Shown here piece after piece: positions 9,616-12,405 of a stretch of DNA of 64,000 nt (position 1 is the stretch's first letter; each line of letters starts with the position of its first letter). Location of the stretch: assembly GCF_024494655.1 (NCBI RefSeq), contig NZ_JANHDL010000002.1, forward strand, positions 124,001 through 188,000, read 5' to 3'. Source of the DNA: Halorubrum laminariae (lineage in GTDB: Archaea > Halobacteriota > Halobacteria > Halobacteriales > Haloferacaceae). Made by a program: the position numbers and the translations under genes. The notes beneath the pieces were generated by a model. That model did not search any database. It was given only the letters and a program-made list of their open reading frames with translations, and was not told the origin of the DNA.

Positions 9616-9711
9616 GTCCGGAAATCCGTCCGGCGCGGTTTTCAAGCTACTGATTCGCGTTCTCGTCCGCCGTCGACGGGCGGGGAGCACTACCTAAGTC
9701 AAGGAGAGAGT

Positions 9712-9729
9712 CCCGCCGTTCACGGCGGG
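9712..9729. repeat. Left-end hairpin of the tnpB element
   Basis: A 7-bp perfect stem (cccgccg / cggcggg) closes a TTCA loop. Paired with the right-end hairpin that has the same loop, it is the likely TnpA recognition structure. Confidence 0.7.
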
Positions 9730-9767
9730 CGTGAATCCGACAAATGTGGAACAACTGCCGACGCCGC

Positions 9768-9899
9768 TCAGTCGGGGGTATCCAAGTCGTCGGCGGCGTG
9801 GACAAGCATCCCGCGCCACGTCAGCCCGTACTTGTTCTTCACGTCTTTTAACCGCTCGTACTGTTCCTCGTCCGGCACTTCGATGTGGATATTCGTCAC
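9768..9899 (-). CDS. Small divergent protein of the tnpB element, 43 aa
   Basis: From GTG 9899 a 43-codon frame runs to TGA 9768-9770, divergent from tnpB and inside the element. The peptide begins TNIHIEVPDEEQYERLKDVK and continues KYGLTWRGMLVHAADDL. This looks like a beta-strand followed by two helices, the layout of MetJ/Arc (ribbon-helix-helix) proteins. Its composition is clearly protein-like, unlike the overlapping frames. I infer a conserved cargo or regulator of tnpB, possibly a repressor of the divergent promoter at 9900-9955. The family is not recognised by name. Confidence 0.6.
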   Translation of the reverse strand: MTNIHIEVPDEEQYERLKDVKNKYGLTWRGMLVHAADDLDTPD

Positions 9900-9955
9900 A
9901 ACTCAGTCTATGAATAACCATAGATTTATGTCTTATCATTCGGCAAAAGTGATGG

Positions 9956-11287
9956 ATGAAGCGGACCAACACGTTCGACGTGGTTCCTCAGTCCGACGCG
10001 GACGAGGAGTTACTTCGACGCCTGTTGGATGCTTCTGCCGCACTCTGGAACGAAATCAACTACGAGCGCCGCGAGAACTACGCCGACCCAGACGCCGACG
10101 TATGGGACATCAGCGAGTATCGCGGCCGCTACGGCGGCACGCTCGGGGCTTCGACCGTTCAGCAAATCGAACGCAAGAACCGCGAAGCGTGGCGGTCGTT
10201 CTTCGCGCTCCAAAAGAAGGGCGAAGCCAACGGCAAGCCCGGATACTGGGGCAACGAGCAGAAGGGCCGCAAACTCCGCACGTACATCCGCAACACGTCG
10301 TATTCAGTCGAGTGGGGCGAATACTCCCGGCTCGAAATCCTCGTCGGCCAAGACCTAAAAGACGAGTACGGACTTGGACACCGCGAACGCCTCCGGCTCG
10401 AAGTCCGGGGCGACCCCAACTGGACGGAGTACGACAAGCAGGGCCGGTTAGAGTTGTTCTGGGACGAGCAAGCACAGACATTCAGGGCCTTTCAGCCAGT
10501 CACTATCGACAATTCTCGACTGACACAACCACTGGGCGACGAAACGGCCGCTCTGGATATTGGTGCGAACAACCTCGTCGCCTGTACGACCACGGCCGGA
10601 ACACAACTGCTGTACGAAGGGCGCGACCTGTTCGACCGGTTCCGCGAGACGACGCGAGAAATCGCGCGATTGCAGGCGCTCTTAGACGACGGCCGGTACA
10701 GCAGTCACCGGATACGCTCACTGTACCGACGCCGGACGCGCCGACGCGACCATGCCCAAGACGCGCTCGCCCGCGACCTCATCGGACGGTTATACGACGA
10801 AGGCGTTTCCACGGTGTACGTCGGGGCGTTGACCGACGTACTCGACACACACTGGTCGGTCGAGACGAACGCGAAGACGCACAACTTCTGGGCGTTCCGG
10901 GCGTTCATCGACCGCCTCGCGTGTACCGCCGAAGAGTACGGCATCTCGGTAGAAGTTCGGTCGGAAGCGTGGACCTCTCAAGAGTGCCCGAACTGCGGGT
11001 CAACCGATCGGACGACGCGTCACCGCGACACGTTGACGTGTCCGTGTGGATTCGTGGGACACGCGGACCTCACGGCAAGCGAGACGTTCTTGAGACATCA
11101 TCAGAACACAAAGAGTTCTGATTGGCGAACGAGACGCAAAGCGTCTCGTCAACGGCAGACAGACGTAGCACGGCCGATGGCACGGCCCGTGCGACTCAAG
11201 TGGGACGACCACGAATGGTCAGAGTCACCACGCTCTTGTCCCAACGAGGAGCGCACGAACCCGCAAGTTACCTCCGTGGGTCGGTAA
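9956..11287 (+). CDS. tnpB: TnpB-family RNA-guided nuclease homologue, RuvC-II acid missing
   Basis: 443 residues. RuvC-I is present in [12 protein letters not shown] (Asp201). The zinc ribbon uses Cys344/347 and Cys362/364 (ECPNCG, TCPCG). RuvC-III is HADLTAS (Asp371). The RuvC-II strand reads VYVGALTD (287-294), where canonical TnpB has a catalytic Glu in an xxxEDL motif. Related haloarchaeal proteins, as I remember them, read VGDL, so here even that Asp is Ala. Active TnpB is a guide-RNA-dependent DNA nuclease that helps its element persist. This copy may be inactive or a binding-only derivative. Confidence 0.88.
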
Positions 11288-11335
11288 GCGATACCCCCCA
11301 GCGCGAGGAAACCCCGGCGTTCACGTCGGGGAGGA
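11190..11335 (+). ncRNA. Putative omega/sotRNA-like guide region at the tnpB 3' end
   Basis: In tnpB elements the guide RNA comes from the 3' part of tnpB and the right end, and sense-overlapping transcripts there are known from haloarchaea. Here the segment covers the tnpB C-terminal codons, the post-stop stretch and the terminal hairpin at 11312-11331. The location is inferred from family knowledge; limits are approximate and no transcript is seen directly. Confidence 0.3.
11312..11331. repeat. Right-end hairpin of the tnpB element
   Basis: ccccggcg / cgtcgggg pair through 8 bp (one G-T) around a TTCA loop, matching the left-end hairpin loop. It ends six bases before the pelA stop codon. 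Confidence 0.7.
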
Positions 11336-11337
11336 TG

Positions 11338-12405
11338 TCATTGGAGCCGATACCGCAAGATCGCGGCGATACCGCCGAGATTCGCGAGCTGCTCGCCGGG
11401 CGCGAACTCCGACGAGAAGACGACCACGTCGCCGCCCTGCTGTTCGACCGATTCGATGACCTCGTTCACGTCGATCGCCCAGTCGCCGTCGCCCTGTCGC
11501 TCGGTGCGGAGCCGCTCGTCGACGACGAGCAGCGTCTCGACTGCGCCGAAGTCGGCCGCCTCGGCCACGTCCTCGGGACCGTACGTCGCCTTCGCGCCCT
11601 GCGCGATCTCGGCAGTGAGATCGTCGATGAGGGTCGCCTCCTTTGTGATCCGCGTCTCCTTTTGTACCTCGTCGACCGCGCCGCGCTTGAGCACCTCGTG
11701 GACGCCGCGGTCGCCGACAGCGGAGGTGTCGACCGTGGTGATCTGGTCGGCCAGATCGCGGTACTCCGCTTCGATGTAATCGAGCGCGTCGGTCTTCGTG
11801 AACCCCGGCCCGGCGAGGATCACGGCGTCGGCGTCGAGGTGCGCGAGTGCCTCGCCCAACTCGGCGAACAGCTCCTCTCGCGGGCGTGAGTAGTCGCCTT
11901 TTCCCGTCGGCTTGGTGAACGAGGCGTACTCCTCGGTGCCGTACTGCTGGACGGTGTGGACGTACGCGGCCCCCTCCTCGACAGTGGCGATCGCCACGTC
12001 GGGGTTCTCTGCGGCCTCCGTCGCCTCCTCAAGCCGCTCGGTCTGGTCCGGCTTGAAGTGTTTCTCCACCGTGATCTCGTCGTGTTCCTCGACGTTGATC
12101 GTGTGGTGGGCGTTGAGCTGATCCTCGCGCGAGCAGGCGACGATGATGCCAGAGACGCGCAGGCGGTTGGCGAACCGGGCGAACTCGACATCGTCGACTT
12201 CGAGCGTGACGAAGATGTGCTCGCGTTGCCCGCCGGTGTCGCGCATCTGGTCGTCGTTCCGCTGGATCCGGCGGGTGGTGTCGCCCTCGACGCGGTCGCC
12301 GGGCTCCAAGACGTGCGCCAGATGCCAGAGATCGTCGACGTTCTCGGGAACGAGAGTGAGCCGCTCGCGGCCCTCCTCGCCGTAGCCCCGATCGGAGATT
12401 CGCAT
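11338..12405 (-). CDS. pelA: mRNA surveillance protein Pelota
   Basis: Pelota/Dom34 rescues stalled ribosomes together with aEF1A and ABCE1. The 355 residues start [12 protein letters not shown] and contain the N-terminal Sm-like domain (RVEGDTTRR), the central eRF1-like domain ([13 protein letters not shown]) and the C-terminal domain ending [20 protein letters not shown]. The GGQ motif of the release factor aRF1 is absent, which separates Pelota from aRF1. The stop codon TGA is followed directly by the tnpB element's right end, so the insertion may supply the stop. DUF4013 protein gene lies 25 bp upstream and is probably cotranscribed. Confidence 0.93.

What the first reader, a model, noticed from the sequence alone, without database searches (positions are those of the whole stretch)
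9956..11287. TnpB with the RuvC-II acidic residue missing
Asp201 (RuvC-I), the zinc ribbon and Asp371 (RuvC-III) are present, but the RuvC-II strand reads VYVGALTD. Canonical TnpB has Glu here. Relatives, from memory, carry VGDL, so this copy has lost even the substitute. It could be nuclease-dead yet still guide-RNA binding, like the TldR repressors derived from TnpB elsewhere, or could use a shifted acid (Glu303 in HWSVETN).
Basis: partly seen in the sequence, partly recalled or inferred. Interest (0 to 1): 0.5.

Follow-up and report, generated by a model that had tools for sequence, protein, structure and literature searches.

The report
Ordinary TnpB with relocated catalytic glutamate
This RNA-guided DNA-cutting enzyme of a salt-loving archaeon looks as if it had lost one of its three catalytic residues, but the missing acid sits at a second, already described position just before the zinc finger, so it is most likely an ordinary working nuclease of a mobile element.

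Summary
The sequence is as reported: a 443-aa TnpB (9956-11287) without Glu in the RuvC-II strand (VYVGALTD). The reading is not. The canonical Glu column is Gly290, Gly in 80 of 80 relatives examined. Ala291, said to be this copy's loss, is a variable column (A 32, G 28, D 17, others 3). Glu303 is E in 59 of 80. Glu337, six residues before the first zinc-ribbon cysteine, is 80 of 80, as are Asp201 and Asp371. In 155 archaeal and 100 viral-contig TnpB cores that passed a motif filter, each has Glu at exactly one of the two positions. This is the Ecan/Ealt dichotomy of Yoon et al. 2023, shared with Fanzor nucleases. The better AlphaFold model (pLDDT 79) puts Glu337 right after a RuvC strand, before the zinc ribbon. 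dN/dS is 0.148-0.205; the gene lies in a mobile element with a covarying terminal hairpin, whose presumed guide fits the empty site beside prf1. So it is very probably an active Ealt TnpB, not a TldR-like repressor. Cleavage itself is inferred. A conserved 43-aa divergent protein inside the element is the less expected find.

The parts
9690..11341 (+). mobile element (IS200/IS605 superfamily, IS1341-like: tnpB without tnpA), here including the 5' target/TAM CTAC at 9690-9693
   Evidence: blastn similarity to 80 family loci starts at 9684-9690 in 28 and ends at 11340-11348 in 49; in most of the others it stops inside the element; five loci run past either limit, by at most about 28 nt; ends aligned; empty site in relatives
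9690..9693 (+). CTAC target tetranucleotide / presumed TAM
   Evidence: CTAC in 40 of 45 left ends, window included; 12 of 23 readable empty sites in relatives have CTAC there
9712..9729 (+). left-end hairpin CCCGCCGT-TC-ACGGCGGG
   Evidence: inverted repeat I5; similar inverted repeat visible in left ends of relatives
9768..9899 (-). 43-aa divergent ORF of unknown function (GTG start), strand-helix-helix-like by eye
   Evidence: protein-level similarity in 37 of 80 family loci; no Pfam or NCBIfam hit
9956..11287 (+). tnpB, 443 aa; presumed catalytic residues D201, E337 (alternative position), D371; zinc ribbon C344/C347/C362/C364
10556..10558 (+). codon of Asp201 (RuvC-I)
   Evidence: 80 of 80
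10823..10828 (+). codons of Gly290 (canonical Glu column) and Ala291 (variable column)
10964..10966 (+). codon of Glu337, relocated RuvC-II glutamate (E-x6-C)
   Evidence: 80 of 80; exclusive with the canonical Glu in 255 cores
11066..11068 (+). codon of Asp371 (RuvC-III)
   Evidence: 80 of 80
11095..11152 (+). in-frame insert of two short palindromes, absent from many relatives
   Evidence: gap in blastn alignments to Halorubrum-type copies
11312..11331 (+). right-end hairpin of the presumed omega RNA
   Evidence: 8-bp stem; in 50 sequences 95.0% of cells paired, 6 of 8 pairs with a change on both sides
11342..11361 (+). presumed guide (3' flank of the element, end of prf1); length assumed
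   Evidence: follows the right end directly; same sequence follows CTAC at the empty site in relatives; a 16-nt probe has one exact match in the own genome, itself

Best explanation
The protein is a catalytically competent TnpB with the 'alternative' (Ealt) RuvC active site. D201 (first RuvC strand), E337 (right after the strand that precedes the zinc ribbon) and D371 (following helix) form the D-E-D metal site; Gly290 stands where other TnpBs have Glu. Like other TnpBs it would bind an RNA made from the 3' end of its own gene plus the adjoining flank, recognise CTAC followed by the guide match, and cut the copy of that site that lacks the element, which favours the element's retention. Shown here: residues, conservation, exclusivity of the two Glu positions, element ends, covarying hairpin, empty site, low dN/dS. 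Inferred: metal binding by E337, RNA binding, cleavage, TAM.
For: G290 in 80/80; D201, E337, D371 each 80/80; E303 59/80; position 291 variable. Archaeal sample: 155 unique cores, 103 non-E290/E337, 52 E290/non-E337, none with both or neither. Viral contigs: 81 E/non-E and 1 G/E among loci found by patterns that do not touch these columns; 15 non-E/E and 3 E/P among loci found by an Ealt pattern. A tree of 128 rows needs 3 changes of the label. E-x6-C fits the definition of Ealt in Yoon et al. 2023, PMC10711439 (one section read). In SpuFz1, E541, D383, N385 and D606 coordinate two Mg2+ (PMC10432273, passage); that E541 is the Ealt follows from Yoon's statement on Fanzors, I did not align SpuFz1. 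The solved mimivirus Fanzor2 chain 9b0l_P has Gly in the RuvC-II strand and Glu-x6-Cys before its zinc ribbon (alignment to L279), and E337 aligns with the same Glu of L279. Model: strand 331-336, then E337, zinc ribbon, D371 in helix 370-386; pLDDT 79.3; VIA-align Z 21.5 to ISDra2 TnpB 8h1j and 19.1 to Fanzor2 9b0l. dN/dS 0.148-0.205 in nine comparisons with the window gene.
Against: No activity data for this clade were seen. The first AlphaFold job was poor (pLDDT 62.6). The core filters demanded a zinc-finger motif and Asp motifs, so strongly decayed TnpBs could not appear, and the A2 set was ranked by likeness to a canonical TnpB. Low dN/dS would also fit a conserved RNA-guided binder. Rfam matches over the presumed omega RNA are below threshold.
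Confidence: 0.92

Rival explanations
1. Nuclease-dead TnpB acting as an RNA-guided repressor (TldR-like).
For: The canonical RuvC-II Glu is absent. A screen that reads only the canonical columns would call it dead; one published TldR analysis (of csrA-associated TldRs) judged intactness by the columns matching ISDra2 TnpB (PMC13418256, passage).
Against: E337 is invariant in 80 of 80 and exclusive with the canonical Glu; flanks of the element differ between relatives; 0 of 23 readable relatives carry the insertion at prf1; the 16-nt guide probe has no exact match elsewhere in the genome, and its five further 2-mismatch matches are fewer than the eight of the reversed control.
Confidence: 0.04
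2. Glu303 in HWSVETN is the shifted catalytic acid.
For: It lies shortly after the RuvC-II strand and is E in 59 of 80 relatives.
Against: R in 13, K in 5, Q in 2 and V in 1 of 80; it lies in a stretch of pLDDT under 50 (298-303), so the model says nothing on it.
Confidence: 0.02
3. Fresh pseudogene or sequencing error at 10820-10845.
For: None for this copy; the own genome also holds two decayed or partial relatives (L002 with an internal TAG, L003 partial).
Against: Same G-A pair at 290-291 in other genomes, e.g. L018, L019, L021; intact ORF; dN/dS 0.148-0.205.
Confidence: 0.01

Closest known systems
Ealt TnpBs with a D-hydrophobic-G RuvC-I motif (Yoon et al. 2023, PMC10711439)
   Same: Glu six residues before the zinc finger, no Glu in the RuvC-II strand, DIG motif in RuvC-I
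   Different: nothing of substance seen; whether that paper's tree includes this haloarchaeal clade was not checked
Fanzor (SpuFz1, mimivirus Fanzor2 9b0l)
   Same: relocated Glu and overall fold (Z 19.1 to 9b0l)
   Different: DIG instead of the DPG fingerprint; archaeal; other Fanzor features not tested
ISDra2 TnpB (8h1j, 8exa)
   Same: fold (Z 21.5 and 21.2), RuvC plus zinc ribbon
   Different: ISDra2 has the canonical Glu position (recalled, not aligned here)
TldR repressors
   Same: no Glu at the canonical column
   Different: here a Glu is kept at the alternative column and the element is mobile, with no fixed partner gene seen
sotRNA / omega RNA of haloarchaeal IS1341-type elements (Rfam sot0042)
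   Same: position at the 3' end of tnpB with a right-end hairpin (PMC12558985, section 19 read; PMC8303175, passages)
   Different: the Rfam match here is below threshold (16.5 of 88 bits)

Membership tests
TnpB (IS200/IS605 accessory nuclease) | OrfB_IS605 and Cas12f1-like TNB domains, TnpB model over cut-off | tested here: met
   PF01385 86 bits, PF07282 51 bits; NF040570 136.1 bits, cut-off 100
TnpB (IS200/IS605 accessory nuclease) | D-E-D RuvC triad, Glu at either known position | tested here: met
   D201, E337, D371 each 80 of 80; by sequence, not by measured geometry
TnpB (IS200/IS605 accessory nuclease) | lies in a mobile element with defined ends and a structured RNA at the right end | tested here: met
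TnpB (IS200/IS605 accessory nuclease) | RNA-guided DNA cleavage | not testable with these tools
   needs biochemistry
Ealt TnpB, D-hydrophobic-G type | Glu six residues before the first zinc-finger Cys, no canonical Glu, RuvC-I motif D-hydrophobic-G | tested here: met
   E337-x6-C344, G290, D201-I-G; definition
Fanzor / pro-Fanzor | DPG RuvC-I motif together with Ealt | tested here: not met
   DIG at 201-203
TldR | inactivated RuvC triad | tested here: not met
   triad complete by sequence with E337
TldR | association with a non-transposon gene | tested here: not met
   flanks differ between relatives; the genes around the relatives were not annotated
TldR | guide directed at a host gene elsewhere | tested here: inconclusive
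   16-nt probe: only exact match is itself; shorter or shifted guides not tested

The most novel reading that the evidence does not exclude
tnpA-less haloarchaeal tnpB elements carry a divergently transcribed 43-45 aa protein that serves as a dedicated partner of TnpB, for example a repressor of tnpB and its RNA. It is conserved as protein next to tnpBs of this clade and of others, and matched no Pfam or NCBIfam model.
Probability: 0.3. Interest if true: 0.45.

Novelty: new member of a known kind. Interest (0 to 1): 0.15.

Why it matters
Mainly as a caution: searches for nuclease-dead TnpBs that look only at the canonical RuvC-II column would count this whole haloarchaeal clade as dead. Both Glu columns must be read. 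The divergent small protein is the part that might repay an experiment.

Tried and rejected
First AlphaFold job on 64 near relatives gave pLDDT 62.6, with segments 187-207 and 291-310 of the RuvC core under 50, and was not used; a wider alignment of 96 rows gave 79.3. Foldseek against the PDB was not run; the VIA-align second look ran. Rfam gave only sub-threshold matches (HgcC 20.1 of 50 bits, sot0042 16.5 of 88 bits). Viral-contig scans with the paralogues L005 and L004 found no relative. No tnpA lies beside the window's tnpB; five Y1 matches lie elsewhere in the genome. Of the 80 family loci, four (L062, L065, L079, L095) showed a tnpA-like hit just upstream of tnpB at E 1e-8. The paper searches on a rearranged RuvC-II site found none and one review; the definition came from papers listed.

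Results that qualify the reading: the element's limits are exact in a part of the copies only. Left similarity starts at 9684-9690 in 28 of 80 loci and right similarity ends at 11340-11348 in 49 of 80; in most of the rest it stops inside the element, and five loci run past either limit by at most about 28 nt. Section 7 of PMC11423790 describes Glu between the fifth strand and the TNB domain as the pattern of Fz, TnpB and Cas12a alike and does not separate the two positions; I follow Yoon et al.

Dropped before counts: the filters required a zinc-finger motif, Asp motifs and a minimum length. In one search, 16 of the 67 pattern-found loci gave the 18 cores counted for that set; loci without a passing core were not counted. 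The A2 set is the best 80 of 551 by likeness to a canonical TnpB. One search used 128 rows, thinned at random from those sets. For the first structure alignment 63 of the 80 family loci were used: 11 not listed (cut or broken matches or left out) and 6 with stops. For the hairpin count 50 sequences were used, chosen by me from the 73 plus the window; those with expanded hairpin loops (L019, L030, L039) were among the ones left out.

Full report
What is there. The ORF 9956-11287 (+) encodes a 443-aa TnpB with D201 in Ruv[10 protein letters not shown] at 287-294, a zinc ribbon from C344 and D371 in RuvC-III.

Which column is which. tblastn alignment to other TnpBs of the same genome places Gly290 under the canonical Glu (IAFENLTG, IVFEELTD, IVFEQLKG) and Ala291 under the following, variable residue. 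In the 80 relatives kept by the genome scan (the best of 194 found), position 290 is Gly in 80 of 80. Position 291 is A 32, G 28, D 17, N 1, E 1, S 1. Position 303 is E 59, R 13, K 5, Q 2, V 1. D201, E337 and D371 are each 80 of 80. So nothing was lost in this copy alone, and Glu303 is not the replacement.

Where the glutamate went. Among the loci of the same genome aligned over both columns, the seven with a canonical Glu have Pro or Ala at the column of E337, and L001 (the window), L002, L005 and L006, with Gly at 290, have Glu there. In 155 unique cores from 183 archaeal loci, 102 are G/E, 1 is S/E and 52 are E/non-E; none has both or neither. In 100 unique cores from viral contigs, the set found by patterns that do not touch these columns gave 81 E/non-E and 1 G/E (the latter L214, of this family), and the set found with an Ealt DNA pattern gave 15 non-E/E and 3 E/P. 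The second set was chosen for Glu at the alternative column, so only its other column is a test; the first was ranked by likeness to a canonical TnpB. The sequences are related, not independent; a tree of 128 of them needs three changes of state, with some deep branches weak.

Known arrangement. Yoon et al. 2023 (PMC10711439, section 23 read) define Ecan about 50 residues and Ealt six residues before the zinc finger, and describe an Ealt clade with a D-hydrophobic-G motif. E337-x6-C344 with D201-I-G fits it. In Fanzor SpuFz1 the residues E541, D383, N385 and D606 hold two Mg2+ (PMC10432273, passage); that E541 is the Ealt follows from Yoon's statement on Fanzors. Another structural paper puts the Glu on the loop between the fifth strand and the TNB domain, as a pattern common to Fz, TnpB and Cas12a, without separating the two positions (PMC11423790, section 7 read). 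The solved mimivirus Fanzor2 (9b0l_P) shows Gly in the strand and Glu-x6-Cys before the zinc ribbon in its alignment with L279, and P0001's E337 aligns with the same Glu of L279.

Structure. The second AlphaFold model (96 rows, pLDDT 79.3, pTM 0.70) has strands 196-202 (with D201), 284-291 and 331-336, E337 directly after the last of these, and D371 in helix 370-386. VIA-align gives Z 24.7 to AsCas12f 8dzj (rmsd 3.4, 361 aligned), 21.5 to ISDra2 TnpB 8h1j (3.9, 335) and 19.1 to Fanzor2 9b0l (3.8, 352). Distances in the active site could not be measured.

The element. Similarity to the 80 family loci starts at 9684-9690 in 28 and ends at 11340-11348 in 49; in most of the others it stops inside, and five run past either limit by at most about 28 nt. 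The flanks shown have no common sequence by eye. The left end holds CTAC in 40 of 45 copies, window included. Of 52 genomes of the genus, 25 prf1 loci were fetched; one is the window and one is cut short. In the other 23 the prf1 3' end is not followed by the element, and 12 read CTAC before the sequence that follows the element's right end here; the rest read TCAC, TTAC or TCAA. The right end carries a hairpin with 95.0% of cells paired and 6 of 8 pairs with changes on both sides in 50 sequences, against 43-64% paired when slid by 1 to 3 columns. The 16-nt start of the presumed guide has one exact match in the genome, its own place, and five more with two mismatches against eight for the reversed control. 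Haloarchaeal elements of this kind are known to make RNAs there (PMC12558985, section 19 read; PMC8303175, passages), though the Rfam matches here are below threshold. dN/dS of the window gene against nine relatives is 0.148-0.205.

Conclusion. An ordinary, probably active TnpB with a known alternative active site. Cleavage, RNA binding and the TAM are inferred.

Side find. A 43-aa ORF on the opposite strand (9899-9768) has protein-level matches in 37 of 80 family loci, most of them starting some 50-65 nt upstream of tnpB; L097's is partial. A 45-aa relative of it had matches in 40 of 97 genomes of the class. Of the 30 loci fetched, 19 have it divergent to a same-clade tnpB, 1 beside a degraded one, 6 near another tnpB and 4 showed none in the DNA held, three of these four being short. 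It has no Pfam or NCBIfam hit. One paper search on TnpB with ribbon-helix-helix listed 15 of 177 papers, and I saw nothing on it in the listing or in the passages of one of them; that is not proof that it is unpublished.

Noticed in passing
window 9899-9768 (-): 43-aa divergent ORF inside the element, with protein-level matches next to tnpB in 37 of 80 family loci and its 45-aa relative also near other tnpBs; strand-helix-helix-like by eye, no Pfam or NCBIfam match.
   Followed up: partly
window 11095-11152; L019, L030, L039 right ends: A 58-nt in-frame insert of two short palindromes in the tnpB C-terminus; similar double palindromes sit in the loop of the right-end hairpin of three relatives. 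The second palindrome (21 nt, up to 2 mismatches) occurs once in the own genome, here.
   Followed up: partly
window 11338-11340: The insertion at the prf1 (release factor) stop appears to have replaced a TAG stop by a TGA supplied by the element's right end, keeping the last residue Gln (sequence reading; the ancestral TAG is inferred from relatives).
   Followed up: partly
L062, L065, L079, L095: These family members carry a Y1 tnpA-like hit just upstream of tnpB, so the tnpA-less copies may be moved in trans.
   Followed up: no
own genome G000: 28 TnpB-family matches in a 3.6-Mb genome, with both Glu arrangements present.
   Followed up: no
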